Positions 10,537 to 40,939 of a stretch of DNA of 64,000 nucleotides are shown here, piece by piece. Positions within the stretch are counted from its first letter, which is position 1. Each line of letters begins with the position of its first letter. This DNA comes from Opitutaceae bacterium (lineage in GTDB: Bacteria; Verrucomicrobiota; Verrucomicrobiia; Opitutales; Opitutaceae): assembly GCA_028280945.1 (NCBI GenBank), contig JANQKV010000001.1, forward strand, positions 62,001 to 126,000, in the 5' to 3' direction. The notes beneath the pieces are model-generated. The model had not been told where the DNA came from. It saw only the letters and a list, made by a program, of their open reading frames with translations, and did not search any database. A program made the translations under genes and the position numbers.

Positions 10537-10546
10537 CGAACAATTC

Positions 10547-13920: not shown

Positions 13921-13935
13921 ATCTGCTCACCCCTG

Positions 13936-15318: not shown

Positions 15319-15321
15319 CCC

Positions 15322-16443: not shown

Positions 16444-16447
16444 ACCA

Positions 16448-17728: not shown

Positions 17729-17764
17729 ATTTCACAAACGCCCAACCTTCGAAACCTACCCGTC

Positions 17765-18892: not shown

Positions 18893-18915
18893 TCGAAATC
18901 GGCACAATCGACAAC

Positions 18916-25358: not shown

Positions 25359-25372
25359 CCCCTGCCGCCCAC

Positions 25373-26584: not shown

Positions 26585-26590
26585 CCCATC

Positions 26591-27862
26591 ATGAACCCGC
26601 GCGAACTTCCCCTGGCCCAGGCTTCCGCCGATGCGATGACCGACCGCAGTGTCGAAATCAAGGTGATCGGATTGGGCGGAGCGGGCGGCAATGCGGTTGA
26701 TCGGTTGGAAATGGACGGCCTTGATCGCTTGCGCTTGGCGGCGGTGAACACCGACCTGCAGGCCCTCAACAGTTCGCCGGTCGAGGAAAAGCTGCTGATT
26801 GGGTCCGCCGTCACGCGTGGTCTGGGGGCGGGGGGCGATCCAGAAATTGGATACGAAGCCGCCGTGGCCGACCGGGACAAGTTCACCGAGCTGGTCGGGG
26901 ATTGTGATTTGGTTTTCCTGATCGCCGGCATGGGCGGCGGAACCGGCACCGGAGCGGCTCCGGTGTTGGCTGAGGCGGCGAGCGAGGCCGGCGCGTTGGT
27001 TATCGCGTTTGTGACCATGCCTTTCAGTTTCGAGGGGTCCCGTCGGTCCAAGCAGGCGGAGGCCGGCCTGGTTGATTTGCGCGGGTGTTGTGATGCCGTG
27101 ATTCCGTTGCCCAACGACCTGTTGTTGCAGGAAGCCGCGGAGGGAGAAACGGCCCTGGATTCGTTTGCCCGCGCCGACGACTGGATAGGCCGGGCGGTGC
27201 GCTCGGTCTGGTCGATGTTATTTCGCACGGGACTGATCAATCTGGATTTCGCGACTTTGCGTCAGGCCTTCCAGACCCGGGGTGGCAAAACCTTGTTCGG
27301 ACTGGGCAGCGGTGCCGGGGAAGACGCGACCGCGGCCGCTTTGGCCAGCCTGGATATGTGTCCGCTGCTCGCCACTCCGGAACATTCCCGCAAGGCCGAC
27401 CGGCTGTTGGTCAACATCGTGGGAGGGACCGATCTGACCCTGCCGAAGGTCAATGAAATCATGGGCGCGGTGACCGAACGTTATGGCCGGGAATCCCACG
27501 TCATCATGGGGGCGGTGATCGACGAGGACCTGCAGGGCCAACTTGAAATCTGCGTGATCGGCACGAGCGATATCGGAGGCCGGCCGGCCTCACGCCGACC
27601 GGTGCGAGCCCGCCCCGCAGCCCGCAACGCGGAGTCTGCCGCGATACCGGAAACCCATCCCACGGCCAAGGCCCCTGCTGCCAAAGCCAAATCTCCCGTG
27701 AAACAACTCGCGGCGGCGGGGCCGGATCAACAGGACGAATTCCTCTTTCAAGGCTCCGGCGAAAATCGCGGGGCATTCGAACGCACCGATCGCAACTTGT
27801 TCGAAGGGCAGGATTTGGATGTCCCGACCTACCTGCGGCGAGGCATCAAGATCAGCCTGTAA
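26591..27862 (+). CDS. ftsZ: Cell division protein FtsZ, divergent
   Basis: A 423-residue tubulin homologue that forms the Z-ring. The GTP-binding signature GGGTGTG is intact near residue 118, as is the N-terminal VIGLGGAGGNAVDRL. The C-terminal peptide LDVPTYLRRG, which binds FtsA, is present after a variable linker. The T7 catalytic loop, however, reads N217-L-D219-F-A-T222, so the position of E. coli Asp212, needed with Asp209 to activate GTP hydrolysis, is Thr. The phosphate-side loop PNDLLL also lacks the usual Arg/Lys after PND. Last gene of the dcw cluster; no clear terminator in the 68 bases before the convergent GntR gene. Confidence 0.95.
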   Translation: MNPRELPLAQASADAMTDRSVEIKVIGLGGAGGNAVDRLEMDGLDRLRLAAVNTDLQALNSSPVEEKLLIGSAVTRGLGAGGDPEIGYEAAVADRDKFTELVGDCDLVFLIAGMGGGTGTGAAPVLAEAASEAGALVIAFVTMPFSFEGSRRSKQAEAGLVDLRGCCDAVIPLPNDLLLQEAAEGETALDSFARADDWIGRAVRSVWSMLFRTGLINLDFATLRQAFQTRGGKTLFGLGSGAGEDATAAALASLDMCPLLATPEHSRKADRLLVNIVGGTDLTLPKVNEIMGAVTERYGRESHVIMGAVIDEDLQGQLEICVIGTSDIGGRPASRRPVRARPAARNAESAAIPETHPTAKAPAAKAKSPVKQLAAAGPDQQDEFLFQGSGENRGAFERTDRNLFEGQDLDVPTYLRRGIKISL

Positions 27863-27930: not shown

Positions 27931-28623
27931 TCAGTCGGCGTAGCCACCCTTTTTGAGGGCGGTGATGATGCGGGATTCGCCTTGCCGGACGTGATTGTGC
28001 ATCAACTTTTTGGCCTGTCTCGCGTCGCCCTCTGCGATCGCAGCTGCGATGGCGAGGTGCTCTTCGTTGGCTTCATCGGCATCGCGTTTGCGACCTAATC
28101 CGAGGAAGGAAGGTTGCTGGTGGCGGTTGAGGGCACGTTCGACCGCCCCGGCGAGGATCGAGTTGCCTGATGCCACGGCAATGAGGCAATGGAAGGCAAA
28201 GTTGGATTCGCAATATAGCGTGTAGGAGTCGGGTTGCCCGCGGTCGAAGCGCAGGGCGGCGGAATCGTTGATGGCGGCGCGTTGCTCCGGCGTGGCCTGC
28301 CGCGCGGCCAGCGAGGCGCACTGGGGTTCGAGGATACGTCGCACTTCGCACAACTCGCGAAAGCTCCCGATCGTCAGCGGTGTCACTCGATATCCGGCGT
28401 TGGGTCGGAGGACCACCAAGTCTTCCAAGGCTAGGCGGTTCAGGGCTTCGCGGAGCGGGGTGCGGGAGACATTATATCGTTTTGTCAGACGTAACTCCAC
28501 CAGCCGTTCTCCGGGTGGAAGGTCGCCGCGAATGATCGCCGCCTTGAGCTGGCCGTAAACCCGCTCGGCCAAGCCCTGGGCATCGTCGGTGGGGAGAAGA
28601 GGGGGCGGGAATCGGGTCTCCAA
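27931..28623 (-). CDS. GntR family regulator, FCD subfamily
   Basis: A 230-residue regulator. The N-terminal winged helix (about residues 15-80) has the GntR pattern VYGQLKAAIIRGDLPPGERL and NVSRTPLREALNRLALEDLV; the C-terminal all-helical FCD domain (about 90-215) binds a ligand, usually a carboxylate or amino acid, through metal-coordinating His/Asp residues (FHCLIAVASGN and the late HLAIAAAI). It is divergent from the TonB receptor gene; a perfect palindrome ATTGTATACAAT lies between them and a near-copy lies at 38619. It probably represses both transcription units until its ligand appears. Confidence 0.92.
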   Translation of the reverse strand: METRFPPPLLPTDDAQGLAERVYGQLKAAIIRGDLPPGERLVELRLTKRYNVSRTPLREALNRLALEDLVVLRPNAGYRVTPLTIGSFRELCEVRRILEPQCASLAARQATPEQRAAINDSAALRFDRGQPDSYTLYCESNFAFHCLIAVASGNSILAGAVERALNRHQQPSFLGLGRKRDADEANEEHLAIAAAIAEGDARQAKKLMHNHVRQGESRIITALKKGGYAD

Positions 28624-28698
28624 GGCCCCGTGACAAGGGCAGAGAGCAGGAGGGATGCAAGAATTTTTACCTCGACCTGGACCCTGTCGGTTTGATTA

Positions 28699-28710
28699 AT
28701 TGTATACAAT
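28699..28710. promoter_or_regulatory. Probable GntR/FCD operator ATTGTATACAAT
   Basis: A perfect 12-bp palindrome with the GTATAC core typical of FCD-type GntR operators, 76 bases upstream of the divergent regulator gene and 106 bases before the TonB receptor. A TTGATT hexamer (28692-28697) directly precedes it, so a bound repressor would cover promoter DNA. The second copy at 38619-38630 differs at one position. Confidence 0.75.
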
Positions 28711-28815
28711 CTTACCCCAAATCGGTTGCATGGCATTGCGCCTGCTAGCTTTTTTACCCGGAAATTTCGCGAGGCGATCCGCTGCGCGTCTGCCCCCATC
28801 TAAACCAATACGACT

Positions 28816-31800
28816 ATGCCAAACCCATCTGACTGCTCACTCCCCTCGCGATCTCGTCATCGACTCTCAACATGGCGGGTTATGCTCGCCTTTCTCATCG
28901 TTGTGCCGCTGGTGGCAACCGCTCAGACGACGACCTCAACCAACGAAGAAGTCATTGAACTCGAGTCTTTCCAGGTGACGGGTTCATTCATCACTCGTTT
29001 CGAAACCGAAGAAACGCTGCCCATCACCACGTTGACCAGTGACTCGTTCTCGGAAGAGGGCCTTGCTACAGGCGGCGAGATTTACACCGATCTCGTCTTC
29101 ACGGGAGCGGCGGAGTTCAACGAATCCGAAGATGGTCCCAATGACGCGCGGGGTGATGTCACATCGATCAACCTCCGCAGCATCGGGTCCGCCTACACAT
29201 TGGTGTTGCTCAACGGTCGCCGCCTGGCACCTCACCCGTTGAATCAGACCATCGACTCGACGCCCTCCGTGTTGGTCAACTCCAACATCATGCCGGCGGG
29301 CTTGATCGATCGCATTGAAATTCTCCGCGACGGCGCCTCCGCGCTTTATGGCACCGATGCCTCGGCCGGTGTGGTCAATACGCTGTTGAGCCGTGATCTG
29401 GAAGGGCAAGAGTTACGGTTCCGCTACGGTTTCACCGAGCAAGGGTCCTACGACGAAACCCTGCTGACGTATTCCGGTGGGTTCGATTTCAACGATGGCC
29501 GCTCCAACCTGACCCTCTTTGCGAGCCACTTTGAGCGCGATTCCATCCCGACGACTGAGCGCGACTACGCTTCGCCCGGCGACAAGCGCCCGTTGGTGCC
29601 GGAGTGGTTCCGCGGCGACACGTCGATTCGCAACGACTCCTCAAGCAGTCCTTTTCCCAACTTGCAGGCGCCGTCCCGCTTGCGCCTCAACGGCAGCAGC
29701 ATTACCGACAGCCGGGGACGCTTCCATGTCCTGCCGGGTGGCATTCCGCTTGGCAATGAAGGCGATCGGTCGGACCTGACCCTGCCCAACGGTTTCGATG
29801 TCATTATCGGCACGTTGGATCGACCCAATCGCTACGACACGGTGCCCCTGCGCACCCTCACGTCGGCGGCAGAACGGATCAACCTGTTCGCCAACCTCAA
29901 TCACGAGCTCACGGAAGACCTGAACCTCTTTGCCGAGGTGGGTTACTACTCTTCGGAGACTTCCCTGGCGCGCGCTCCCTCCAACATCAGCTCGTCGGCG
30001 GCGATCACGATCCCGGCGCAAAACCACTGGAATCCCTTTGGTCCGGTCACGTTTTCCGATGGCTCGCCAAATCCCAATCGGATCGATGGCATCACCATCA
30101 ACGGAGACCCGCTGCCGGACGAGGGTATCCCGATTGCCCTCAACAATTGGCGGGCGGCGGACTTCGGCCAACGTTTGGTGGACGTCGAGAATGAATCGAT
30201 TCTGGCCACAGTCGGCCTCAGCGGTCGCGCGTTCGAGGACTGGTATTGGGAAACCGCCCTGCGCTACAACATCAACGAAGCCACCGATACCGAGACCGGT
30301 CGCTTCTCCAAGACCGGTTTTGAGCAGGTGCTGGCACGGGAAACTCCAGATGCGCTTAACGTCTTTGCCGGGCCGGGCGTAAACGATCCCGCCAATGTGG
30401 AGCCGGCGTCGATCAGCGTCACGCGCGTGGGCGAGACCGAACTGTTTTCTTACGACCTTCGCGCTACCACCCCCAATCTCTTCGAACTTTTTGGCAACCC
30501 GGTCGGCGTCGCTTTTGGCGGGGAGCTGCGGATGGAGTCGTATGAGGATGACCGCGATCCGCGGATTGATGGCACGATTCGTTTCGATGACTCCGTCAAC
30601 GGTGCCTCGGACGTCATCGGGGTAAGTCCCACACCGGACACGTCCGCCGAACGCGATGTTTATGGGTTCTTCGCCGAGGCGGCGATCCCGCTGGTCGGCG
30701 AAGCGAACCGCATGCCCTTGTTCCACCGCATGGAGTTGCAGCTCGCGGCGCGTTTTGAGCACTACGATGACTTTGGCGACGTGACGCGACCGAAGATTGG
30801 TGCTTCCTGGTATCCGGTGCCGGATCTGATGGTCCGCTCCAGCTACGCCGAAGGGTTCACTGCGCCTAATCTCTCGCTGTTGACCCAACCCATCCAGCGT
30901 TCGAATGAGGGCATCGACGACGAATACCGCATCCAATTCGATCCGGACAACCCCGCCAACGACGGCACGGACCCGGTCTCGGAGCTGCGCGGCGGTGGCA
31001 TAAATCTAGGACCGGAGGATTCCGAAACGTTCACGGTCGGCACCGTCCTCCGGGTTCCCGGCATTGAAGGGCTCACGCTCAGTGCGGACTACTTCAACAT
31101 CAAGATCACCGACATCATCCTGATCGAAAGCACGGCGGACGTGCTCGAAGACGAACGTGATATTCTCAACGCGCTTGCCTTTGACGCCAGCGTGCAGCCG
31201 GGCGACACGCCAGCGGCCACCGATCTGGTGCGTCGCCGCCCCGTAACCGCTCAGGACATCGCGGTGGCCCAAGCGGCCGGTCGGTATGCTGTCGGCGCCA
31301 TCGATCAGGTGATCAACACCTTCCGCAATGGTGCGGTCCGCGAAGTCGAAGGAGTTGATTTTGGCCTCGAATACGTCTTCCCGGAAACGAACTTCGGCCG
31401 GTTCACCCTCGAAGGAAACGCCTCCCTGCTCGAGGACTACATTGAGCAAGCGTTTGTGGGCGGACCGATCAATGACGACATCCTGGGCGATGCTGACGAA
31501 GCGCAACCAGAGTTCCGGGCGCGCGGCAATCTGTCATGGCGCAAGGATAATTGGCGCGCCCGCGTCAACTTCCGCTACATCAGCGGGGTGACCGAGGATG
31601 ATGTCGATTCCGATGAAGACCTCGATCCGACCGGTGTATCCCGCGAGTGGGAGGTCGACGAGTATTGGGAGTTCGGCGCGTCCGGCTCATACACATTTGA
31701 CGAGGGCATGTTCGAAGGCACCCGCCTCCTGTTCGGGGTGCGCAATCTGCTCGATGAAAACCCTCCCTTGAACCCCGACGAAAGCTACGGTTACGAGTCC

Positions 31801-31857
31801 AACCTCCATAGCAATCGCGGTCGGTTCTACTATGCGGAGGTGCGTTACGAATTCTAG
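28816..31857 (+). CDS. TonB-dependent receptor, large
   Basis: A 1013-residue outer-membrane receptor: signal sequence (MLAFLIVVPLVATAQ region), possible TonB-box region VIELESFQVTGS near residue 45, plug domain (NLRSIGSAYTLVLLNGRRL near 120, IEILRDGASALYGTDASAGVVN near 165), then a beta barrel ending in the aromatic motif YYAEVRYEF. Such receptors take up scarce compounds too large for porins. No siderophore gene or polysaccharidase is adjacent; instead it heads a run of amino-acid and peptide enzymes. I infer a peptide or amino-acid derivative as substrate. First gene downstream of the 28699 operator; the start is uncertain because no ribosome site is visible. Confidence 0.92.
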   Translation: MPNPSDCSLPSRSRHRLSTWRVMLAFLIVVPLVATAQTTTSTNEEVIELESFQVTGSFITRFETEETLPITTLTSDSFSEEGLATGGEIYTDLVFTGAAEFNESEDGPNDARGDVTSINLRSIGSAYTLVLLNGRRLAPHPLNQTIDSTPSVLVNSNIMPAGLIDRIEILRDGASALYGTDASAGVVNTLLSRDLEGQELRFRYGFTEQGSYDETLLTYSGGFDFNDGRSNLTLFASHFERDSIPTTERDYASPGDKRPLVPEWFRGDTSIRNDSSSSPFPNLQAPSRLRLNGSSITDSRGRFHVLPGGIPLGNEGDRSDLTLPNGFDVIIGTLDRPNRYDTVPLRTLTSAAERINLFANLNHELTEDLNLFAEVGYYSSETSLARAPSNISSSAAITIPAQNHWNPFGPVTFSDGSPNPNRIDGITINGDPLPDEGIPIALNNWRAADFGQRLVDVENESILATVGLSGRAFEDWYWETALRYNINEATDTETGRFSKTGFEQVLARETPDALNVFAGPGVNDPANVEPASISVTRVGETELFSYDLRATTPNLFELFGNPVGVAFGGELRMESYEDDRDPRIDGTIRFDDSVNGASDVIGVSPTPDTSAERDVYGFFAEAAIPLVGEANRMPLFHRMELQLAARFEHYDDFGDVTRPKIGASWYPVPDLMVRSSYAEGFTAPNLSLLTQPIQRSNEGIDDEYRIQFDPDNPANDGTDPVSELRGGGINLGPEDSETFTVGTVLRVPGIEGLTLSADYFNIKITDIILIESTADVLEDERDILNALAFDASVQPGDTPAATDLVRRRPVTAQDIAVAQAAGRYAVGAIDQVINTFRNGAVREVEGVDFGLEYVFPETNFGRFTLEGNASLLEDYIEQAFVGGPINDDILGDADEAQPEFRARGNLSWRKDNWRARVNFRYISGVTEDDVDSDEDLDPTGVSREWEVDEYWEFGASGSYTFDEGMFEGTRLLFGVRNLLDENPPLNPDESYGYESNLHSNRGRFYYAEVRYEF

Positions 31858-31902
31858 TTTGCCGACCAAGCTGGAGCAGTTGCCTGTCTCGGTCCTCGCC
31901 CC

Positions 31903-32904
31903 ATGAGCTTTTGGGTCTGTGCCCGTGTATCGGTAGGTCTTCTCGCCCTTGCGCCCCCACTCTTATCCAGCGGAGGGGTAGGGGCGAGCGAGGCCGACTG
32001 GCGGGCTGAGGTCGAGGCGCTTATGGATGAAGGGAGTCGGACGGGCGCCGCTTCCGGCGCCTACGTCGAGGCTCGCGCTTTGCTTGATGCTCAACTGGCG
32101 GACCAACCACACAATCCAGAGGCAGTGTTTTGGCTCGCTCGGCTCGACTCCAAAACCGGTCGACCCCTGGCGGCGGCGGCGGCGTATTTTAACCTCGTCG
32201 AGTCCGACCCGGCGCATCACAGCGCAATCGCCGGATTGGCTTATGTTTTGCGCTACGCCGGATTTCACGACACTTCGATTGCGCTGTATGCGTTGTTGGT
32301 GGAGCAGCAAAGTGCGGTTTACGGCGCGTCTCGCGCGTGGTCGCAGACTACCAAAAACCACCTCTACACGGGCGACTACGCCAGCGCGCATGCGTCCGAC
32401 CTCGCCATGTATGCCGCCATCCGCGACAAGGGCGAAGCGGTTACCGAAAAACATCTCTTCTATTCGGGATTGGTCGCCGCTTACCGCGGCGACGCCGAAT
32501 CCGCCCATGCGTTTTGGCGCGCCAGCGAAGCACTCAGGCCGAATACGGTCTGGTCAAATTTCGCCGCGAGTTACGCCGCCGCGTTCGCTGGCGATCCGAT
32601 CACGCTTGAATCGAAACTGGCGTGGTTCGAGGCGCTCGGGGTGCAGGATGGCGAACGGTATTATCGGTTTGTCCATCTGCACGCGCTCGGCGGAAACAGC
32701 GACGCCGCTGCCATGGCCTTGGCGGGCACCCTGCAACGCGGTTTTTTTCCGATCGATTATTGGCGGAATGATCCGTGGGTCTCTGCCGTCGTCCAACTGC
32801 CTGCCACGGAAGCGCTGTTCGCTGCCGCCGAATCGCAACGACAAGCTTTCTTTCCTCTTTTGCAACGCATCCACCCCTGGCTCGAAACCCAAACCACCTC
32901 ATGA
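31903..32904 (+). CDS. Exported protein with TPR-like repeats
   Basis: A 333-residue protein with an N-terminal signal sequence (about residues 1-26) and helical repeats consistent with TPR: LADQPHNPEAVFWLARLDSK, LVESDPAHHSAIAGLAYVL and later pairs. Probably periplasmic. It has no catalytic motif. Position between the receptor and the isoaspartyl peptidase-like enzyme, with a 4-base overlap into the latter, suggests an accessory role such as partner binding for the uptake system, which is inference. Homologues may be confined to this locus type. Confidence 0.75.
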   Translation: MSFWVCARVSVGLLALAPPLLSSGGVGASEADWRAEVEALMDEGSRTGAASGAYVEARALLDAQLADQPHNPEAVFWLARLDSKTGRPLAAAAAYFNLVESDPAHHSAIAGLAYVLRYAGFHDTSIALYALLVEQQSAVYGASRAWSQTTKNHLYTGDYASAHASDLAMYAAIRDKGEAVTEKHLFYSGLVAAYRGDAESAHAFWRASEALRPNTVWSNFAASYAAAFAGDPITLESKLAWFEALGVQDGERYYRFVHLHALGGNSDAAAMALAGTLQRGFFPIDYWRNDPWVSAVVQLPATEALFAAAESQRQAFFPLLQRIHPWLETQTTS

Positions 32905-33950
32905 AATCCATTCGTCATTTGATCTCTCTGGCGGGCGCCCTGCTCGCGGCTACCACGCCACTCTCCGCCGAATCGCCTCCCATTGCACTGGTTGTCCACG
33001 GAGGCTCCGGCGTGCTCTCGGCCGACCGTATGACTCCCGAGTTGCGAGTGGCCTATTACGAGAGTCTCGATGAGGCGTTGCTCGCTGGCCACACGGTGCT
33101 TACGCGCGGAGGTTCCAGTGTCGATGCGATTGTCGCCGCGATTACCATTTTGGAGGACTCGCCGTTGTTTAACGCCGGTCGCGGCGCGGCCTTTACCCGG
33201 ACAGGCACAAACGAACTTGATGCCTCGATCATGCGGGGGCAGGACCTCGAAGCGGGTGGCGTTTCCGCCGTGAAGTATGTCAAGAATCCGATCCTTGCCG
33301 CCCGGGTTGTAATGGAAGACACGCCGCACGTCTTGGTCACGGCGGACGGTGCCCTTGAGTTGGCGATTCGCGAGGAACTCGAGCTGCGCCCGCCTTCCTA
33401 TTTTTGGACCGAGCGGCGCTGGAACAGCCTGCAAGAGCGCATTAAGCGCAACATCGAGTATGGCGGTCGCCTGACGTCGGCGCTCGATCCCGCGACGGGC
33501 CGACTCGACTCCGAATACTACGGCACCGTCGGCGCGGTTGCCCTTGATCAGGCTGGCAACATTGCCGCCGGCACCTCTACCGGCGGTCGCACGATGAAAA
33601 TGCCGGGCCGGGTGGGGGATTCGCCTATTATTGGTGCGGCGACCTATGCGAACAACGCCACCGCCGGCATCTCGACGACCGGTTTGGGCGAAGTCCACAT
33701 GGTGATTTGCTCAGCCCACACGGTTTCGGCGTTGATGGAGATGAAGGGCCTGGACGTGCAGGCCGCTCTCGATGAGGTCATTTGCAAGCGTCTCGTCGAC
33801 GCGGGCGGAGGTGGCGGTGCCATCGCCATTGATGGCAACGGCGACGTGGCCATGTCCTATTCTGACGATGGTATGTATCGCGGATTCGTCCAAAACGACG
33901 GGGCGCGCCATATCTTCATCTACGACGAGCAGGAAGTCGCCCCGGAATGA
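32901..33950 (+). CDS. Isoaspartyl peptidase / L-asparaginase family (Ntn hydrolase), exported
   Basis: A 349-residue plant-type asparaginase/isoaspartyl peptidase. Residues 1-23 form a signal peptide (LAGALLAATTPLSA). The alpha region has VVHGGSG, SVDAIVAAI and LFNAGRGAAF; self-cleavage is expected before Thr209 in YYGTVGAVALD, giving the catalytic N-terminal Thr of the beta chain, with TSTGGRTMK and ISTTGLGE as substrate-site motifs. The family hydrolyses beta-aspartyl dipeptides and asparagine, and some members also glycosylasparagine. Periplasmic location suits imported peptides. The ATG overlaps the TPR gene stop, and the end overlaps the aminotransferase. Confidence 0.9.
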   Translation: MKSIRHLISLAGALLAATTPLSAESPPIALVVHGGSGVLSADRMTPELRVAYYESLDEALLAGHTVLTRGGSSVDAIVAAITILEDSPLFNAGRGAAFTRTGTNELDASIMRGQDLEAGGVSAVKYVKNPILAARVVMEDTPHVLVTADGALELAIREELELRPPSYFWTERRWNSLQERIKRNIEYGGRLTSALDPATGRLDSEYYGTVGAVALDQAGNIAAGTSTGGRTMKMPGRVGDSPIIGAATYANNATAGISTTGLGEVHMVICSAHTVSALMEMKGLDVQAALDEVICKRLVDAGGGGGAIAIDGNGDVAMSYSDDGMYRGFVQNDGARHIFIYDEQEVAPE

Positions 33951-35119
33951 GGATTTCCCAACGACTGGCCAGCCTGCCTGCCTCGGACACGGTGCGCCTC
34001 GCTGATCTCGCCACGCGCAAGCGTGAGCGGGGCGAGGTGGTCTACGATTTCTCGGCCGGTCGGGCCTGCGAAGACACGCCGGGTCCCATCTGCGAGCGGG
34101 CAATCCATGCGCTCCGCACCGGCGATACGCACCAGACGATGGCGCAGGGCACGACAGCCTACCGCGCCGCTTGCGCCAACAAACTGGCTCGGGAAAACGA
34201 CATCACGGCGGACCCGGCCACGGAGGTGATCGCGACGATGGGCAACAAGGAGGGCCTGCTCTGCGCCCTGCTGGCGACGATTGATCCCGGCGACGAAGTC
34301 ATTGTCGAAGACCCGGGGTTTGTCAGCTACGGACCCACCGTCCGGCTGGCGGGGGGCGTGGAGCGACCGGTGCCGTTGCGACCGGAAAACGGGTTTCGGT
34401 GGAACTTGGCCGAGTTGGAACAAGCCGTCACGCCGCGCACCCGCGCACTGATATTTTGCTCGCCGCATAATCCCTGCGGCACGGTTCATTCGCGAAGCGA
34501 ACTCGACGGGTTGGCTGCGCTGGCCGCTCGCCACGATCTCGTCGTCATCACCGACGAGATTTACGAACGCGTGGTTTGGGCGGGCCGCCAACATGTATCT
34601 CTGGCCTCCCTCCCGGAGGCCCGCCAACGCACGATCTCGTTGATGGGTCTGACCAAGGCGTTTGCGATGGGCGGCTGGCGGGTGGGGTTTGCGCTCGCGG
34701 CACCTGCGCGCATTGAAGCCATGACCAAGGTGCAGCAGCATCTCATCACCTCGGTCAGTTCGTTCGTGCAAGCCGGGGCCAGCGCGGCGTTTGGCGAGCC
34801 TGCGTCGGCGGAGGTCAAACAACTCTGGCAAACGTGGGAAAAGCGCTGCTTCCACGTCGCCGACACGCTCGACGCGGTGCCGGGGCTGACGTGTCCGCGG
34901 CCGGAGGGAGGGTTTTATGTTTGGATCGACCACCGCACGTTTGACGGGAGTTCGCTCGATTGGGCGGAACGCCTGTTGCGGGAATTTGGGGCGGTGGTCG
35001 TGCCCGGCAGCGCCTTCGGTCCGCAGGGAGAGGGTTTTTTGCGCATGACCAGTGTGAAATCGGATGACGAGTTGGCTGCCGGTTTGGAGCGCCTGACCGC
35101 CGCGTTTTCGTCCCCATGA
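33947..35119 (+). CDS. Class I/II pyridoxal-phosphate aminotransferase
   Basis: A 390-residue fold-type I aminotransferase, probably cytoplasmic. Motifs in order: VIATMGNKEGLLCAL, the SPHNPCGTVHS segment near residue 170, VITDEIYERVVW near 200, the PLP-binding Lys in GLTKAFAMGGWRVGF near 236, and a late Arg in EGFLRMTSV that would hold the substrate carboxylate. It transfers an amino group from an amino acid to a 2-oxo acid; the family covers aspartate-, aromatic- and alanine-specific members and I cannot choose between them. It overlaps the genes on both sides by 4 bases, so it belongs to the same transport and degradation operon. Confidence 0.9.
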   Translation: MRISQRLASLPASDTVRLADLATRKRERGEVVYDFSAGRACEDTPGPICERAIHALRTGDTHQTMAQGTTAYRAACANKLARENDITADPATEVIATMGNKEGLLCALLATIDPGDEVIVEDPGFVSYGPTVRLAGGVERPVPLRPENGFRWNLAELEQAVTPRTRALIFCSPHNPCGTVHSRSELDGLAALAARHDLVVITDEIYERVVWAGRQHVSLASLPEARQRTISLMGLTKAFAMGGWRVGFALAAPARIEAMTKVQQHLITSVSSFVQAGASAAFGEPASAEVKQLWQTWEKRCFHVADTLDAVPGLTCPRPEGGFYVWIDHRTFDGSSLDWAERLLREFGAVVVPGSAFGPQGEGFLRMTSVKSDDELAAGLERLTAAFSSP

Positions 35120-36342
35120 AAATGCCGCCGATTCAGCGTTGGGGTTTGGGAGTTTGGGTGCTGCTCGGCATGGTGGGGGGTGTCGGGTTGGGCGTCGGTT
35201 TGCCGACCTTGGTCGAAACCTATGCGGTCGTGGGCCAGGTTTTCCTCAACCTGCTGATGGCGGTGGCGATTCCGCTGATCTTTTTTAACCTCGTGAGCGG
35301 GCTCGGGCAACTCCCCGGCGCGGGGGCCTTGGGTTCGCTCGGCGGGCGTTTGGTCGGCTTTTATGTCGGCACGACGACGGTGGCACTCGCGCTGGGTTTG
35401 ACCATGGCGAGTGGGTTGGAACCCGGCGCCGGTTTTGAGCTGCGCGGCGAGGCACCGGAGGGGTTGGGAGCGATGCCGAGTATTGGGCAGGTCTTCCTCG
35501 ATTTTGTGCCGCGCAACATTTTCGACGCGTTTGTCGACGGCAAGATCACCCAGATCGTTGTGTTTGGAGCTTTGCTGGGGGTGGCCCTGCTGCTGTTACC
35601 CGACCCGTGGCGGGACGGGGCGAAGTCGTTTTTTGATCATGGGGCGACGCTGCTACGCCAGATGGTGAAGCTCATCCTTTACACCGCGCCCGTCGGCGTC
35701 GGGGCGCTGACGGCGGAAAACGTCGCGATCTACGGCGCGGGTCTGCTCGGTCCCCTGGCGACGCTGGTGGGAGGTATCTGGTTGGCGCAGGGCGGGATGG
35801 TCACGCTTTACTTGTTGCTGTTGAAGTTCGTCGGGCGGGTCTCGCCGCTGCGTTTCTTGAAGCTGACGGCTCCGCTTTACGCCACGACAGCGGCGACCTG
35901 CAGCAGTGTGGCCAGTCTGGCGGTGAGTCTCGAAATCGCGGAGAAGCGCCTGCAACTGCCGCAGCGCATTTACGCGTTTGCGCTTCCGCTCGGTTCCCAA
36001 CTGAACAAGGACGGCACGTCGATCATGCTCAGCGCGGTGCTCTTGTTTACCGCGCAGGCGGCGGGGATTTCGTTCAGCTTTGGCGAACTTGTGGCGATCC
36101 TGCTGGTCGGCCTCATCCTGTCCGAAGGCTCGGGCGGAATTCCTGGAGGTGGCTTTATCATTTCGCTGCTGTTTGTCGAAGCCTTCAACCTGCCGATCGA
36201 AATTGCCGCGGTGGTGGGGGGAATCTACCGGCTCATCGACATGGGCAGCACCACCATCAATTGCATGGGCGATCTCGTCGCCTCAACCCTCCTCACCCGG
36301 TGGACCGACCGTTTGCCGGAAACCCTCGTTCCCAAACCATGA
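35116..36342 (+). CDS. Dicarboxylate/amino acid:cation symporter (DAACS) with altered substrate site
   Basis: A 408-residue inner-membrane carrier of the glutamate-transporter fold, with eight transmembrane helices and two re-entrant hairpins. HP1 region TCSSVASLAVSLEIAEK, TM7 LGSQLNKDGTSIM (usual form NMDGT), HP2 SEGSGGIPGGGFI, TM8 RLIDMGSTTINCMGD. In the archaeal homologue GltPh the TM8 pair is Asp394/Arg397; Asp375 is kept here but the Arg that grips the acidic side chain is Ser378. Neutral amino-acid carriers of this family also lack that Arg, so a neutral substrate is more likely than Glu or Asp. It overlaps both neighbours. Confidence 0.9.
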   Translation: MKMPPIQRWGLGVWVLLGMVGGVGLGVGLPTLVETYAVVGQVFLNLLMAVAIPLIFFNLVSGLGQLPGAGALGSLGGRLVGFYVGTTTVALALGLTMASGLEPGAGFELRGEAPEGLGAMPSIGQVFLDFVPRNIFDAFVDGKITQIVVFGALLGVALLLLPDPWRDGAKSFFDHGATLLRQMVKLILYTAPVGVGALTAENVAIYGAGLLGPLATLVGGIWLAQGGMVTLYLLLLKFVGRVSPLRFLKLTAPLYATTAATCSSVASLAVSLEIAEKRLQLPQRIYAFALPLGSQLNKDGTSIMLSAVLLFTAQAAGISFSFGELVAILLVGLILSEGSGGIPGGGFIISLLFVEAFNLPIEIAAVVGGIYRLIDMGSTTINCMGDLVASTLLTRWTDRLPETLVPKP

Positions 36343-37466
36343 TGTGCTCACGTTCCCTCATTTCCCGACTCCTGCCGTCCGCCTCACTCTTCGGTCTGTT
36401 CGTTGTCCTCGCCGCGACGTCCGTGGCGCAGCGTCCGCCGGTAGCGGTGGTCGCTCCTCACCGGCTCTACATCGACGTGGCGGACACCGTGTTGTCGCTG
36501 CCCTACCACAGCACCCATTTGCTCGATACGCCGGACCCGTCGGTTACGCATCTCGTCATCTCGCAGCACGGAGCGAGCCGCAACGCCGACCAATATTTCG
36601 AGCGCATGGTCAATCCCGCCCGCGAGGTTGGCGTGCTTGGGCACACGGCCATCATCGCCCCGCAGTTTTTGGAGCGCAAAGACGTGGCGGAATGGGGCCT
36701 CGATCCCGACGTGCTCTACTTCACGGGTGATGCCTGGCGGGGAGGGGGACTCTCCAACAACACCAACGCCCATCCGCGGGCTGCGCAGCTCAGTGCGTTT
36801 GCCGCGCTCGACGCCTTGCTGCTGCGCTGTGCCCATGTGTTTCCCAATCTCGAAGGCATGGTGCTGGCCGGACACTCCGCCGGCGGTCAATACATGAACC
36901 GCTATGCGGCGGCCAGCCGCTTGGAGCCGGTCCTGCGCGACAGTTTTGGCATCCGCCTGCGCTACATCGTGTCGAACCCGTCGTCCTACGTTTACTTCAC
37001 GGAGAAACGTCCGGTTCCGGGTGAGCCGGGAGTCTTTGCCGAGCCGGATGATGCCACCGAGGATGCCAATCCGGCCTTTCACCTCTACAAATACGGCGTG
37101 GATGAATTGCCGCTTTATTGGCAACACACCGGACTGGAGCGTGCCATGGCTCAATACGAGAACCGCAACGTCATTTATCTGCTGGGCGAAGACGACAACG
37201 ATCCCAACCATGGCAGCCTCGACACCCGCGGCGGAGCGATGCTGCAGGGACCCACCCGTCTCCAGCGGGGCCTTAACTATTTCCGCTACATGGGCCATCT
37301 GTTTGGCGACGGGGTCTATCGCCATCATCGCATCGCGATCGTGCCCGGCGTGGGCCACAGCTCCGGGGGCGTTTTCGCCTCCGATGCCGGAAAGTTCTAC
37401 CTCTTCGGCGCGGGCGAACGCGCGGATGGCCCGCTCGAACGTTACGGCGTGAGCAATGCGAAGTGA
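36339..37466 (+). CDS. Secreted alpha/beta hydrolase of unknown substrate
   Basis: A 375-residue protein with a signal peptide (about residues 1-30, LFGLFVVLAATSVAQ). The nucleophile elbow is AGHSAGGQ near residue 175; a late GVGHSSGGVF supplies a plausible catalytic His, and acidic candidates lie in GEDDNDPNHG. The start overlaps the symporter stop by 4 bases, so it closes the operon begun by the TonB receptor. The oxyanion region LVISQHGASRNADQY near 70 resembles esterase-type hydrolases rather than peptidases. I do not recognise a specific family; it could release an ester-linked or acylated form of the imported compound. Confidence 0.75.
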   Translation: MMCSRSLISRLLPSASLFGLFVVLAATSVAQRPPVAVVAPHRLYIDVADTVLSLPYHSTHLLDTPDPSVTHLVISQHGASRNADQYFERMVNPAREVGVLGHTAIIAPQFLERKDVAEWGLDPDVLYFTGDAWRGGGLSNNTNAHPRAAQLSAFAALDALLLRCAHVFPNLEGMVLAGHSAGGQYMNRYAAASRLEPVLRDSFGIRLRYIVSNPSSYVYFTEKRPVPGEPGVFAEPDDATEDANPAFHLYKYGVDELPLYWQHTGLERAMAQYENRNVIYLLGEDDNDPNHGSLDTRGGAMLQGPTRLQRGLNYFRYMGHLFGDGVYRHHRIAIVPGVGHSSGGVFASDAGKFYLFGAGERADGPLERYGVSNAK

Positions 37467-37470
37467 CCTC

Positions 37471-38616
37471 TCACCAACCGTTGATGCGCGGCCATTCGGT
37501 GATGATCTTTGTCGATCCGGTCTGCACCACCTGGTAGCGGTCGTGCGCTGCGGCGGTCATGCACGCGTGGTTGGGCAGGATGCGCAGGCGCGAGCCGATG
37601 GGGAGTGCCTCCCAAGGTGGCTCGCCGTCGTCCGCCGCGATGAGGCCGTGCTCCTGGTTGGCTGAGGCCACCTTGAGTCCCGGCATGACACGGGTGCCGG
37701 CGAGATCGGTTATCAGGCCGAAGCCGTAGTCGTTTTTTTGGGCGGCGGTGCCCCGGTCCTTGGAGAGCGCCATGCCGCCTGCGTCGACGAGAATCCATCC
37801 GTGCCGCCGTTGGTGGCCGATGACCGTGGTGACCACGCTGAGGGCGATGTCGTCGATCGAACAGATGCCGATGTTGGACTGCACAAGATCCTGGAAAACA
37901 AAGACCCCGGCGCGGATTTCGGTGAGTCCGGCGTGGCTGTTTTTCGCCAGGGCCGTGGGGGTCGAGCCGGCGCTGACCATCGGGCAGGGCAGCCCGGCGG
38001 TGGTAAGTTGATGGGCGGCTTGCAGGGCGCCTGCCCGCTCGACCTCGGCGATGGCAGCCAGGGCTTCGGGCGTATCGCAGCCGTAACTTTCGCCTGCGTG
38101 AGTCATGATGCCTTCGAGGATCGTGCCGGGGTGCGTGTGAATGAGCCGGGCCAGCTCGGACACTTGCGGATCGTCAGGGGCGAGCCCGGCGCGGTGACCA
38201 TCGGTGTCGATCTCGATCAGCAGCCGCAATGTGATGCCGGCCGCCGCCGCGGCCGCGGCCACCTGCCGGGCATTCTCGATATCGTCGACCACACAACGGA
38301 CCAAGGCACCCTTGCGGACCAATGCGGCCACGCGCCCCACTTTGTCGGGCACGATGCCGACGGCATACAATACGTCGGTCACCCCGTTGGCGAAAAAATA
38401 TTCCGCTTCGCGCAACGTGGAAACCGTGATGCCGCCGACACCTTCGGGAAAAAGCGAGCGGGCGACGTCGATGCTCTTCGCCGTCTTCATGTGCGGGCGC
38501 AGTGGCAGGTCGCCGATCGCAGCGCGCATAGTCTTAATGTTGTGCTCCATGCGATCTCGATCCAGCACGAGTGCGGGGGTCGGAATAGTGGCGAGATCGG
38601 CTGAGGTGGAAGGCAT
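37471..38616 (-). CDS. DSD1-type D-amino-acid dehydratase/aldolase (PLP, fold type III)
   Basis: A 381-residue alanine-racemase-fold PLP enzyme of the D-threonine aldolase / D-serine dehydratase (DSD1) family. The PLP Lys is Lys44 in RPHMKTAK, the PLP-phosphate region includes AGSTPTA, and the C-terminal zinc or divalent-metal site is His350 and Cys352 in PNHACMTAA. Relatives act on D-threonine, D-serine or D-threo-3-hydroxyaspartate, all D-beta-hydroxy amino acids. It is divergent from ridA with a GTATAC operator only 2 bases upstream of its ATG, leaving no room for a ribosome site, so the mRNA may be leaderless. It is convergent with the hydrolase operon. Confidence 0.88.
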   Translation of the reverse strand: MPSTSADLATIPTPALVLDRDRMEHNIKTMRAAIGDLPLRPHMKTAKSIDVARSLFPEGVGGITVSTLREAEYFFANGVTDVLYAVGIVPDKVGRVAALVRKGALVRCVVDDIENARQVAAAAAAAGITLRLLIEIDTDGHRAGLAPDDPQVSELARLIHTHPGTILEGIMTHAGESYGCDTPEALAAIAEVERAGALQAAHQLTTAGLPCPMVSAGSTPTALAKNSHAGLTEIRAGVFVFQDLVQSNIGICSIDDIALSVVTTVIGHQRRHGWILVDAGGMALSKDRGTAAQKNDYGFGLITDLAGTRVMPGLKVASANQEHGLIAADDGEPPWEALPIGSRLRILPNHACMTAAAHDRYQVVQTGSTKIITEWPRINGW

Positions 38617-38618
38617 GG

Positions 38619-38630
38619 ATTGTATACGAT
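38619..38630. promoter_or_regulatory. Second GntR/FCD-type operator (ATTGTATACGAT)
   Basis: Eleven of twelve bases match the palindrome at 28699-28710. It lies in the divergent space between the DSD1-type gene (ATG at 38616) and ridA-ggt. The core contains TATAC in both directions, so it could double as the -10 element of both promoters: a minus-strand TATACA here would place the transcription start at about the A of the dehydratase ATG. Confidence 0.65.
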
Positions 38631-38751
38631 TTGAACGATGAGCAGCGGCAAGCCGGAAAGCCCTGCGGAGGGGCGAATTGGCGAAAAACCACAGCAGACT
38701 TCGCGCCGGGACCGCTTGACCCTACCCGTTTGCCGCCGACAGTTCGACTCG

Positions 38752-39141
38752 ATGGTGCTGCGCAAAATTTTTCTCCCTGACGTTCCGGCTCCCGCCGGGC
38801 ACTACAGCCCGGCCGTTGCGGCCAATGGGTTTCTCTACATCTCGGGCCAACTGCCCCTCGATCCGAAATCGCCGGGAGCGGGTGTGCCGGACGGAATCGA
38901 TGCGCAAACCGAACAGGTTTTTGCCAACTTGTCCGCCGTGCTGGCCGCAGCCGGATCGACCAAGGAGGATCTCGTTAAGGTCACGATCTACGTGAACGGC
39001 ATCGAGCATTGGGACCGAATCAATGCGCTCTACACGGCCTACATGGGTGACCATCGACCGGCGCGGGCGGTTGTGCCCACGCCGCCGTTGCACTTTGGCG
39101 CGTTGCTTGAGTTGGAGGCGGTTGCCCTGTGCGCGGAATGA
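38752..39141 (+). CDS. RidA-family enamine/imine deaminase
   Basis: A 129-residue RidA (YjgF/Rid) protein. It hydrolyses reactive enamines and imines, such as 2-aminoacrylate, made by PLP-dependent Ser/Thr dehydratases. Typical stretches are GHYSPAVAANGFLYISGQLPLD, QVFANLSAVLAAAG and DLVKVTIYV; the substrate Arg is kept in RPARAVV, and the protein ends LLELEAVALCAE. The ATG at 38752 gives the family length; the frame is open back to an ATG at 38638, just after the operator, which would add a 38-residue non-homologous leader. It is divergent from the DSD1-type gene, which fits a dehydratase-deaminase pair. Overlaps the next gene by 4 bases. Confidence 0.9.
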   Translation: MVLRKIFLPDVPAPAGHYSPAVAANGFLYISGQLPLDPKSPGAGVPDGIDAQTEQVFANLSAVLAAAGSTKEDLVKVTIYVNGIEHWDRINALYTAYMGDHRPARAVVPTPPLHFGALLELEAVALCAE

Positions 39142-40835
39142 GCATCGAGCGAGGTGGGCGGCGATTGCTGCACCGGTCATGGGGTGCCTGCTTGCTGGTG
39201 CTCGGGATGGGTTGCGCGGTCGGGGCACAGTCGCCCGCGGCACAGCGGGCCGAGGCGGCCTCCGGCATGATCGTGGCGGGGCATCCAGCGGCGGTGGAAG
39301 CGGGGCTCGCGGTGTTGCGCCAAGGCGGCACGGCGATGGACGCAGCCGTGGCGGTTTCGTTGGCACTGGGCGTGGCGGAACCCTACGGATCGGGGATCGG
39401 GGGGAAACTGTTGTTTCTTCACTACGAGGCAGCTTCAGGCGAAGTCACCGTGGTCGATGCGCTGGATGCGGCGCCGCACTCGCTCGACGTGGACAGTTTT
39501 CGTGATTTGTCCAGCGACGAACGGGCGGGCGGCTGGGTCTCAGTCGCCGTGCCGGGCTGTCTGGCGGGGTTGGAAGCCGGGCACGCCCGGTGGGGAAGGC
39601 TGTCATGGGCCGACTGTGTCGCTCCGGCGGTGGCGGTGGCGGACGAAGGTTTTTCGATCCTGCCCAAAACTCACCTATTTCTCGGCGCTGCCGCCTTTCG
39701 GCTCAGCGAGGATGCCACGACAACGTGGACGGCGTTTTTTGAGGAGGACGGGCAACCCCTGCCCATCGGAGCGGAGACCCGGCATCCGGAGTTGGCGGAT
39801 ACGCTTCGCCTCGTGGCGGTCGAAGGCGCGGCGGCGTTTTATGAGGGTCACCTTGGCGAGGCCTACGTCTCCGCAGCCCGGACCGCCGGCGTGGACCTCT
39901 CGATGAACGACCTTGCCGACTACGCCGTCCGCATCACCGAACCAGGGCAGGTTGCGGTCGCCGGTGGCACCCTCTGGGTGGCTCCGCCTCCGGCGGTGGG
40001 CGGAATCATTACCGGAAGTTACTTCCTGCGCGTGCAGCTCGATGAAGCGGAAATCGAGCCCATCGATGACGCCGGTGCCGTCGTGGATTATGCCAAGCGC
40101 CTGCACCCGCTCTTTGCCCCCATCTATGCCCGGGCCGGAGACGAGCCGGGAGCGGCGGAAGCGGTTTGGGCTTGGTGGGAAGCTGGCATGCCCGCCATGC
40201 CGGATGCCGTGGCCAACTCTGCCGACGAATCCGCCGTGAGTGCTTTCGCTGCGTCCTTCACGACGCATTTTGTAGTCGGCGACGAGGCGGGCAACATTGT
40301 CTCTGCCACGCAGTCGCTCAGCTCCCACTTTGGCGCGGGCGTGGAGATTACCGGCACGGGCATCGTGATGAACAACACGATGAAAAACTTTGCGTTGCTC
40401 GATCCGGCATCCGTGAACCGACCGGCCCCGGGCAAGCGCCCGCGCACCACCATCGCACCGGTCCTTTGGACGGGCGAAACCGGAGAGGTGCTGGCGTTGG
40501 GTTTGCCGGGAGGCGCACGCATTCCGACCGGCACGATCCAAGTGTTGCAGGCGCATTTCGCCGGATTGCCGCTGGGGGAAGCGATTGAGCAGGCGCGCGT
40601 GCACGTCGAGCGCCCTCGGGACCCGTTGAATGCTCGCCGGAAAATTGTGTTTGAAACGACACCCCACGAAACGGTGTCTGCGGTTGTGCAGGAAGCCGGG
40701 TGGGACATCGTGCCGCCGGCCTCGCCCGAATGGTTTGGCGGCGTGTGTGCGCTGCGTTGGACCGGAGAGGCTTGGATCGGTTGGGCGGACCAACGCCGCA
40801 CCAACGCGGCGGCAGGCTGGACCGCACTCCGGTAG
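39138..40835 (+). CDS. Gamma-glutamyltransferase-like Ntn hydrolase, exported
   Basis: A 565-residue protein with a signal sequence (about residues 1-33, ACLLVLGMGCAVGAQ). It has the GGT fold: ASGMIVAGHPAAVEAGLAVL, GGTAMDAAVAVSLALGVAEP and SGIGGKLLF in the large subunit, self-cleavage before Thr375 in FTTHFVVGDEAGN, and the oxyanion Gly pair in GLPGGARIPTG. GGT hydrolyses or transfers gamma-glutamyl groups of glutathione and gamma-glutamyl peptides in the periplasm. Compared with E. coli GGT, some substrate-binding residues of the small subunit are hard to place, so the true acyl group could differ. Co-transcribed with ridA (ATGA overlap). Confidence 0.88.
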   Translation: MSIERGGRRLLHRSWGACLLVLGMGCAVGAQSPAAQRAEAASGMIVAGHPAAVEAGLAVLRQGGTAMDAAVAVSLALGVAEPYGSGIGGKLLFLHYEAASGEVTVVDALDAAPHSLDVDSFRDLSSDERAGGWVSVAVPGCLAGLEAGHARWGRLSWADCVAPAVAVADEGFSILPKTHLFLGAAAFRLSEDATTTWTAFFEEDGQPLPIGAETRHPELADTLRLVAVEGAAAFYEGHLGEAYVSAARTAGVDLSMNDLADYAVRITEPGQVAVAGGTLWVAPPPAVGGIITGSYFLRVQLDEAEIEPIDDAGAVVDYAKRLHPLFAPIYARAGDEPGAAEAVWAWWEAGMPAMPDAVANSADESAVSAFAASFTTHFVVGDEAGNIVSATQSLSSHFGAGVEITGTGIVMNNTMKNFALLDPASVNRPAPGKRPRTTIAPVLWTGETGEVLALGLPGGARIPTGTIQVLQAHFAGLPLGEAIEQARVHVERPRDPLNARRKIVFETTPHETVSAVVQEAGWDIVPPASPEWFGGVCALRWTGEAWIGWADQRRTNAAAGWTALR

Positions 40836-40939
40836 TCGCGACGGTCAGGAACGGCGGCATCAAAATCACGTTGTAAGTTTACCACCGGTTGACGAAGCCT
40901 CCCCTTGGCAAGTGGGGGCGATTGTGCAGGTTTGGAGCG

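What the first reader, a model, noticed from the sequence alone, without database searches (positions are those of the whole stretch)
27931..40835. Candidate new uptake-and-catabolism regulon for unusual peptides or D/beta-hydroxy amino acids
One GntR/FCD regulator and two near-identical operators bracket two transcription units: TonB receptor, exported TPR protein, exported isoaspartyl-type Ntn hydrolase, aminotransferase, DAACS symporter and exported alpha/beta hydrolase; and, divergent from a DSD1-type D-amino-acid lyase, RidA plus an exported GGT-like Ntn hydrolase. Every compartment is covered: outer-membrane import, two periplasmic hydrolases for non-alpha peptide bonds (beta-aspartyl, gamma-glutamyl), inner-membrane uptake, and cytoplasmic PLP enzymes with the deaminase that handles their reactive products. 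I know of no named pathway with this set. The inferred substrate is a peptide or conjugate releasing D-serine, D-threonine or a similar amino acid.
Basis: partly seen in the sequence, partly recalled or inferred. Interest (0 to 1): 0.75.

Follow-up and report, generated by a model that had tools for sequence, protein, structure and literature searches.

The report
Regulon for eating isoaspartyl-type peptides
A bacterium carries a switch-controlled set of ten genes, found complete in one relative and in part in several others, that probably captures, cuts up and eats unusual aspartate-containing peptides joined through the wrong carboxyl group, a food source whose natural origin is not known to us.

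Summary
In detail: all ten genes are present, and the two palindromes are the only exact TTGTATACRA sites in the 5.44-Mb genome.

The regulon idea holds. In 371 genomes of the order, the GntR gene gave 21 hits in 19 genomes. Twenty places entered the count: eight carry a TonB receptor and a poly(Asp)-hydrolase-family gene with GntR, and all eight have the palindrome upstream of GntR (six exact, two with one mismatch); the other 12 do not. G1141 has all ten genes. The lyase, RidA and aminotransferase are rare in the other seven.

The substrate reading changes. [quoted passage not shown] with the isoaspartyl peptidase it suggests beta-aspartyl peptides or polymers. The 'D-Ser/D-Thr' lyase is nearest D-threo-3-hydroxyaspartate dehydratase. 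The GGT homologue lacks the Arg for the gamma-glutamyl carboxylate.

Against: the hydrolase match is weak, the symporter lacks the Arg that reads an acidic side chain, and nothing was assayed. D-serine stays possible. My searches listed no such locus. New variant of a known kind.

The parts
27931..28623 (-). GntR/FCD transcriptional regulator of the locus
   Evidence: PF00392 + PF07729; 61-62% identical regulator divergent from the same gene row in G832
28699..28710 (.). operator 1, ATTGTATACAAT, in the GntR/TBDT spacer
   Evidence: like palindrome in 8 of 8 relative places with the cluster, 0 of 12 without
28816..31857 (+). TonB-dependent outer-membrane receptor
   Evidence: PF00593 + PF07715; 61% L268, 62% L280, 67% L065
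31903..32904 (+). TPR protein, apparently exported, role unknown
   Evidence: PF14559; same place in L065, L268, L280
32901..33950 (+). apparently exported isoaspartyl peptidase/asparaginase (Ntn, Thr nucleophile)
   Evidence: PF01112 3.7e-97; 2zak E 6e-73; GTVGAV and PGRVGD motifs
33947..35119 (+). aminotransferase class I/II, aspartate/aromatic aminotransferase-like
   Evidence: PF00155; 1dju, 1gd9, 1j32 at 4e-70 to 9e-70
35116..36342 (+). DAACS symporter with Ser where acidic carriers have Arg (Arg397 of GltPh, numbering recalled)
   Evidence: PF00375; 9bgz aspartate transporter E 2e-67; DMGSTTINCMGD
36339..37466 (+). [quoted passage not shown]
   Evidence: 6ve6 E 1.9e-6 alone, 5.6e-8 as 3-sequence profile; Ser180, Asp286, His340 invariant in 14 aligned sequences
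37471..38616 (-). PLP/metal lyase, D-threo-3-hydroxyaspartate dehydratase-like
   Evidence: 3wqc E 2.8e-115 against 3.9e-56 for 3anu D-serine dehydratase; RPHxKT and NHAC motifs
38619..38630 (.). operator 2, ATTGTATACGAT, between lyase and RidA units
38752..39141 (+). RidA imine/enamine deaminase
   Evidence: PF01042; TIGR00004 107.1 against cut-off 106.25 bits
39129..40835 (+). apparently exported GGT-family Ntn hydrolase without the gamma-glutamyl-binding Arg
   Evidence: PF01019; Thr at 378 where solved small chains begin; Leu where BlGGT has Arg

Best explanation
A GntR/FCD-controlled, TonB-linked utilisation locus for beta-aspartyl (isoaspartyl-type) peptides or polymers. Shown by sequence: one regulator family with a TTGTATACAA-type palindrome marks the locus in the window and at eight places in seven relative genomes, with TonB receptor and poly(Asp)-hydrolase-family gene as the constant partners. 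Inferred mechanism: GntR represses both units until an inducer, probably a released amino acid, lifts it. The TonB receptor takes oligomers into the periplasm. The poly(Asp)-hydrolase-like enzyme cuts internal beta-amide bonds, the isoaspartyl peptidase removes beta-Asp units, and the altered GGT-type enzyme opens another amide. The DAACS symporter brings a released amino acid in. In the cytoplasm the aminotransferase handles Asp-like products, and the D-threo-3-hydroxyaspartate-dehydratase-like lyase turns a D-configured beta-hydroxy acid (most likely 3-hydroxyaspartate) into an enamine/imine that RidA hydrolyses to keto acid and ammonia. My odds by layer: regulon 0.95; beta-aspartyl substrate 0.6; 3-hydroxyaspartate as the lyase substrate 0.4.
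For: Operator: 8 of 8 relative places with the cluster have the palindrome, 0 of 12 without. All ten genes in G1141, L280 + L295. In G832, GntR, TBDT, TPR, isoaspartyl peptidase, aminotransferase on one contig and hydrolase on another, DAACS split between the two contig ends. Hydrolase: 6ve6 1.9e-6, profile 5.6e-8. A relative in G174 hits 6ve6 at 5e-77 and sits in a row PahZ1-TBDT-DAACS-GGT, also in G155 and G064. Isoaspartyl peptidase beside PahZ1-type genes in L241, L282, L284. Carriers beside these loci: DAACS, DcuC (L292), DASS (L277), families that have C4-dicarboxylate members (recalled), and an NhaC-type one. Lyase: 3wqc 2.8e-115; homologues in Vreelandella, Kushneria and Polaromonas lie near a threo-3-hydroxy-L-aspartate ammonia-lyase above cut-off, with RidA and DAACS in the first two. 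L065 has BhcB- and BhcD-like genes, below cut-off. D-aspartate-oxidase-like gene beside GntR in G832. PahZ1 cuts beta-Asp amides (PMC4456602).
Against: The hydrolase is only a distant PahZ1 relative (no Pfam/NCBIfam match; 23-29% to four PahZ1-type homologues); a structure prediction failed (mean pLDDT 37.9). The symporter has Ser or Asn where GltPh-type acidic carriers have Arg (window, G832, G1141), which argues against plain Asp uptake. Lyase: nearest characterised member, not a tested orthologue; of the eight places only G1141 has it whole and G832 has it broken; most of its 79 other homologue loci show no hydroxyaspartate partner in my query set (PALP 6 of 79, OCD 4 of 79). Isoaspartyl peptidase is missing at 3 of the 8 places. 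L065 lacks GntR, aminotransferase, symporter and RidA in its 21 kb. Of nine alphaproteobacterial PahZ1 neighbourhoods six had no TBDT, GGT or DAACS hit; two Bordetella ones, L238 and L181 had none either. No natural beta-linked Asp or hydroxy-Asp polymer is known to me.
Confidence: 0.55

Rival explanations
1. One reading: the released amino acid is D-serine, D-threonine or another small neutral D-beta-hydroxy amino acid, cut from a beta-aspartyl peptide and carried in by a neutral-type DAACS symporter.
For: Ser or Asn in place of the acidic-side-chain Arg in the symporter of three loci; the lyase family includes D-serine dehydratase and D-threonine aldolase; [quoted passage not shown]
Against: Lyase far closer to the 3-hydroxyaspartate enzyme than to D-serine dehydratase (388.5 against 193.9 bits); some homologues sit with 3-hydroxyaspartate genes; the DAO-family gene of G832 is nearest D-aspartate oxidase.
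Confidence: 0.22
2. The locus degrades a natural product with beta-hydroxyaspartate, such as a siderophore or lipopeptide, taken in by the TonB receptor, rather than a polymer.
For: L279 (G883) has a 47% GntR, operator-like sites, a siderophore-type receptor over its cut-off (271 against 223.5), a PepSY_TM protein, and M20 peptidase, BhcB-like and cyclodeaminase-like genes together.
Against: The window receptor reaches no siderophore-receptor cut-off; none of the families named in the locus is an iron gene; L279's metabolic genes also resemble hydroxyectoine genes, and its operator-like sites are about 4 kb from its GntR.
Confidence: 0.12
3. General salvage of isoaspartyl and D-Asp residues from aged protein, or of D-isoasparagine bridges from peptidoglycan.
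For: Isoaspartyl peptidase in the window, L065 and 5 of the 8 places; D-aspartate-oxidase-like gene in G832.
Against: A beta-hydroxy-acid lyase and a dedicated receptor are not needed for that; no amidase or muramidase family among the ten genes; isoaspartyl peptidase missing at 3 of 8 places.
Confidence: 0.08
4. A chance neighbourhood of ordinary amino-acid genes.
For: Symporter and lyase homologues are common: 95 and 57 of 188 sampled genomes of the class.
Against: All ten genes together in G1141 and most in order in G832, with the palindrome.
Confidence: 0.03

Closest known systems
Poly(aspartic acid) hydrolase-1 (PahZ1) of Sphingomonas sp. KT-1 and Pedobacter sp. KP-2
   Same: Alpha/beta hydrolase; [quoted passage not shown] the window enzyme is a distant homologue with Ser, Asp and His invariant in the family alignment
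   Different: Only 23-29% identical to four PahZ1-type homologues of the same order, and longer; here in a GntR-controlled TonB locus, which the parts of the paper that I saw do not mention
D-threo-3-hydroxyaspartate dehydratase of Delftia sp. HT23 (3wqc)
   Same: 52% identity to the D. acidovorans gene of L122, which is near-identical by eye to 3wqc; PLP-Lys and metal motifs; RidA is the next hit in L122
   Different: Separate branch with L065; no substrate tested; apart from RidA none of the query proteins hit the Delftia locus
beta-hydroxyaspartate cycle (bhcABCD)
   Same: 3-hydroxyaspartate chemistry; lyase related to BhcC; L065 adds BhcB- and BhcD-like genes
   Different: All below cut-offs; no BhcB- or BhcD-like gene in the window locus; has hydrolases and TonB import
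E. coli isoaspartyl peptidase EcAIII
   Same: Family, nucleophile and PGRVGD motif
   Different: Apparently exported and in a dedicated operon; below the NF007589 cut-off
Gamma-glutamyltranspeptidase
   Same: Family and Thr nucleophile
   Different: Arg for the glutamyl carboxylate is Leu or Met in 5 of 5 GGTs of this order that were compared

Membership tests
Poly(aspartic acid) hydrolase-1 family | significant sequence match to solved PahZ1 | tested here: met
   6ve6 1.9e-6, profile 5.6e-8; weak, carried by short stretches
Poly(aspartic acid) hydrolase-1 family | Ser-Asp-His catalytic set | tested here: met
   S180, D286, H340 invariant in 14 aligned sequences; that they are catalytic is inferred
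Poly(aspartic acid) hydrolase-1 family | same fold by structure | tested here: inconclusive
   prediction failed, mean pLDDT 37.9
Poly(aspartic acid) hydrolase-1 family | cleavage of beta-Asp amides | not testable with these tools
   needs assay
D-threo-3-hydroxyaspartate dehydratase | PLP-Lys and metal His/Cys motifs | tested here: met
   RPHxKT and NHAC; residue roles recalled
D-threo-3-hydroxyaspartate dehydratase | grouping with the characterised enzyme apart from other DSD1 enzymes | tested here: inconclusive
   in the 86-row group that holds L122 (100/99) but not beside it; solved D-Ser and D-Thr enzymes were not in the tree
Isoaspartyl peptidase (EcAIII) | Thr nucleophile and PGRxGD motif | tested here: met
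   below the NF007589 equivalog cut-off, 277.5 against 567
Gamma-glutamyltranspeptidase | Arg binding the gamma-glutamyl carboxylate | tested here: not met
   Leu in the window; role of the Arg recalled; TIGR00066 255.6 against 357.85
beta-hydroxyaspartate cycle | bhcA, B, C, D equivalogs together | tested here: not met
   only a BhcC-related lyase, 140.2 against 690 bits
Acidic amino-acid DAACS carrier (GltPh type) | Arg in DMxRT of TM8 | tested here: not met
   DMGST in the window; role of the Arg recalled
GntR/FCD regulator with palindromic operator | conserved palindrome upstream of the regulator across homologous loci | tested here: met
   9 of 9 with the window, 0 of 12 without the cluster

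The most novel reading that the evidence does not exclude
A natural beta-linked polymer or peptide of aspartate and 3-hydroxyaspartate exists, and this group of Verrucomicrobiota has a dedicated regulon to eat it; poly(Asp) hydrolases, isolated for degrading a synthetic polymer, evolved for it.
Probability: 0.25. Interest if true: 0.8.

Novelty: new variant of a known kind. Interest (0 to 1): 0.55.

Why it matters
Poly(Asp) hydrolase-1 comes from bacteria isolated as degraders of thermally made poly(Asp) (PMC4456602, part read); what such enzymes meet in nature is, as far as I know, open. A regulator, a readable operator and a shared gene set make the question testable: find the inducer and the substrate follows. 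It also suggests where peptide-bound 3-hydroxyaspartate might be recycled. Not in print as far as these searches show, judged from their listings: PahZ1 (1 paper); hydroxyaspartate + siderophore + catabolism; polyaspartate + hydrolase + TonB-dependent; isoaspartyl + TonB-dependent receptor + polymer; the operator word ATTGTATACAAT; poly aspartic acid or strain KT-1 (15 of 56 listed). The library holds open-licence papers only.

Tried and rejected
Structure prediction of the hydrolase from window + L065 gave mean pLDDT 37.9; no fold search was made. Plasmid records with lyase or PahZ1 homologues: eight opened. Novosphingobium aromaticivorans has lyase + RidA; one record had no annotation; among the genes listed for the other six no such locus was seen (PLSDB gene tables are incomplete). 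Rfam scan of the window at gathering threshold: nothing. Promoter/terminator scan: 1 and 12 sites, no more than shuffles. Two PubMed Central papers were opened, in passages or in part. An ORF of L245 first taken for GGT is an amidohydrolase and was dropped from the GGT comparison; the GGT of alphaproteobacterial L242 has Thr at the Arg position. A guessed PALP stretch in L036 was not the true frame, so that gene of G174 stays unclassified. The M20 gene in L276, L277 and L292: L292's is nearest carboxypeptidase G2 (3.7e-32) and 7ljh, named poly(aspartic acid) hydrolase, only 2e-7, so PahZ2 is not claimed. One of 21 GntR places (G886 C6, 32%) was read only after the count and is not in it: no cluster, one GTATACAA half-site 63 bases upstream of the match. 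L276, L293 and L294 are not in the GntR tree (L276's match runs past the stop codon). At most 7 candidate places per genome were scored, so further GntR paralogues may exist. Some genomes appear under two handles with the same coordinates (G883 and G064, G957 and G117, G894 and G069).
Full report
WHAT IS THERE. The locus sits between ftsQ/ftsA/ftsZ-like genes and an Obg-like gene (names by eye from the translations). The two palindromes are the only exact TTGTATACRA sites in the held 5.44-Mb genome and appear in none of 100 shuffles of the window. GTATAC alone proves nothing.

IS IT A REGULON? The window GntR was searched in 371 genomes of the order of L065's genome, a sample. L065 is titled Puniceicoccaceae, which the NCBI taxonomy puts in Verrucomicrobiota, class Opitutia. 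G883 in this sample has the coordinates of G064, a same-family genome of the window, so the order is also the window's. There were 21 places in 19 genomes at E <= 1e-20. Twenty were read at once and compared with the locus proteins. Eight places in seven genomes have a TonB receptor and a poly(Asp)-hydrolase-family gene with GntR: L268 with L239 (G832; the hydrolase is on the second contig), L276 (G832 again), L277 (G887), L278 with L241 (G898), L280 with L295 (G1141), L282 (G1035), L284 (G1117), L292 (G1155). Within 800 bases upstream of GntR all eight, and the window, have a TTGTATACAA site with at most one mismatch: six of the eight have an exact one, L277 and L292 have TTGTATACGA, the form of window operator 2. 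None of the 12 other places has one. Fisher p is 3e-6 with the window counted; the genomes are related, so this is not a true probability, and one of the 12 had only 61 bases to inspect. Place 21 (G886 C6) was read later: no cluster, one half-site near its GntR. In a tree of 18 GntR rows nine regulators without the cluster form one clade (100/99), apart from those with it; L279, also without it, lies outside that clade.

HOW COMPLETE ARE THE RELATIVES? Counts over the eight places: receptor 8, hydrolase family 8, isoaspartyl peptidase 5, GGT 5, DAACS 3, aminotransferase 2, TPR 2, lyase 2 (one broken), RidA 1. So the constant core is GntR, palindrome, receptor and hydrolase; the window is a long version. 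G1141 has TBDT, TPR, isoaspartyl peptidase, aminotransferase, DAACS, hydrolase, GGT and RidA in one direction, and GntR with the lyase directly behind it in the other, with palindromes at 9024 and 9272 of L280; the lyase would there be under the same operator, as proposed for the window. G832 has GntR against TBDT-TPR-isoaspartyl peptidase-aminotransferase and a DAACS piece at the end of contig C60, and DAACS-hydrolase at the end of C13: the window's order if the contigs adjoin, which is inferred. Its lyase is broken into frames, by decay or assembly error. L065 keeps TBDT, TPR, isoaspartyl peptidase, hydrolase, lyase and GGT but not aminotransferase, DAACS or RidA in its 21 kb, nor the palindrome, and its genome gave no GntR hit. 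Of the 79 other lyase-homologue loci fetched, 29 have a RidA hit, 2 DAACS, 3 GGT, 1 TBDT, none the hydrolase or isoaspartyl peptidase.

THE HYDROLASE. Its only solved relatives at E <= 1 are the two poly(aspartic acid) hydrolase-1 structures (6ve6 1.9e-6, 9o7u 2e-4). A profile of the window, L065 and G832 proteins gives 5.6e-8 and 7.3e-7. Fourteen aligned sequences share Ser180, Asp286 and His340. A relative in G174 matches 6ve6 at 5e-77 and stands in a tight row PahZ1-TBDT-DAACS-GGT, also found in G155 and G064. [quoted passage not shown] With the isoaspartyl peptidase (2zak 6e-73; motifs kept) this suggests beta-aspartyl bonds. Of nine alphaproteobacterial PahZ1 neighbourhoods opened (31 of 289 genomes had a match), three had TBDT, GGT or DAACS hits (L242, L244, L245) and six none; two Bordetella ones and L238 had none. 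So the link is strongest in the window's own order.

THE LYASE. D-threo-3-hydroxyaspartate dehydratase gives 388.5 bits, D-serine dehydratase 3anu 193.9, D-3-hydroxyaspartate aldolase 112.3, D-threonine aldolase 107.2. Delftia acidovorans L122 has a gene near-identical by eye to the first, with RidA next to it. PMC8071972 (passages read) states that the Delftia enzyme acts on D-threo- and L-erythro-3-hydroxyaspartate. Vreelandella (L071) and Kushneria (L090) keep a 50-51% homologue with RidA, DAACS and a threo-3-hydroxy-L-aspartate ammonia-lyase above its cut-off (595.6 and 597.6 against 452); Polaromonas (L103) has the ammonia-lyase (583.2) and a BhcD-like gene (208.7 against 500). L065 carries BhcB-like and BhcD-like genes (322.4 against 550, 419.9 against 500). 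These are the telling cases out of 80 loci; PALP hits occur in 6 and OCD hits in 4 of the 79 besides L065, and three of the six PALP hits were not classified. The tree puts window and L065 together (100/100) in the large group with the Delftia enzyme, not beside it.

OTHER POINTERS AND COUNTER-EVIDENCE. G832 has beside GntR a flavoenzyme nearest D-aspartate oxidase (146.9 bits against 115.7 for D-amino-acid oxidase); it is 61% identical to the L065 one. NCBIfam gives it only a weak glycine-oxidase match (83.9 against 250.8). Carriers in these loci are DAACS, DcuC (L292), DASS (L277) and an NhaC-type one (L241, L284); that the first three families have C4-dicarboxylate members is recalled. Against this, the window, G1141 and G832 symporters have Ser or Asn where acidic carriers of the GltPh type have Arg (DMGST/DMGNT; the two Halomonadaceae ones keep DMxRT). 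That favours a neutral or otherwise altered substrate and leaves D-serine, asparagine-like or amide products open. The GGT homologue has lost the Arg of the gamma-glutamyl site (NSRERAP in B. licheniformis, VDALDAAP here; Leu or Met in window, L065, L177, L178, L180), so its acyl group is probably not a standard gamma-glutamate.

VERDICT. The regulon is real and conserved in a core of four features; beta-aspartyl chemistry is the best-supported substrate; 3-hydroxyaspartate is the likeliest lyase substrate but not settled. Nothing here has been assayed by me, and I found no paper on such a locus (searches named under why it matters).

Noticed in passing
L279 (G883 C36) 10346-19123: A 47% GntR, a siderophore-type TonB receptor over its cut-off and a PepSY_TM gene, divergent from an M20 amidohydrolase, a BhcB-like (403.1 against 550 bits) and a cyclodeaminase-like gene, with ATTGTATACGAA and ATTGTATACACA in the divergent spacer: possibly siderophore or hydroxyectoine catabolism.
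   Followed up: partly
L241 (G898 C60) 3468-15584: Three PahZ1-type hits, an isoaspartyl peptidase, an NhaC-type carrier, a weak S51 (cyanophycinase-family) match below cut-off and a CapA-like PGA_cap protein in one stretch.
   Followed up: partly
L239 (G832 C13) about 12327-12757: The lyase gene is broken into frames while the neighbouring hydrolase is open.
   Followed up: no
L245 (alphaproteobacterial G661): PahZ1-type gene near DASS, Lyase_1, D-amino-acid-dehydrogenase-like, DAACS, amidohydrolase, M14 and TBDT genes, another possible version of the locus.
   Followed up: partly
window 24444-27862 and 40889-41965: The locus lies between ftsQ/ftsA/ftsZ-like and Obg-like genes (names by eye).
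   Followed up: no
L276, L277, L292: In these three loci a gene of about 380-400 codons lies between receptor and hydrolase: M20 in L276 (Pfam), M20-type in L277 (NCBIfam) and, in L292, nearest carboxypeptidase G2 with 7ljh (named poly(aspartic acid) hydrolase) at 2e-7.
   Followed up: partly
L133 (Caulobacter sp. RHG1): A 49% lyase homologue with a BhcD-like gene (350.5 against 500), a DUF2817 peptidase-like gene, a POT transporter, a PALP gene and a TonB receptor nearby, perhaps a related peptide pathway.
   Followed up: partly
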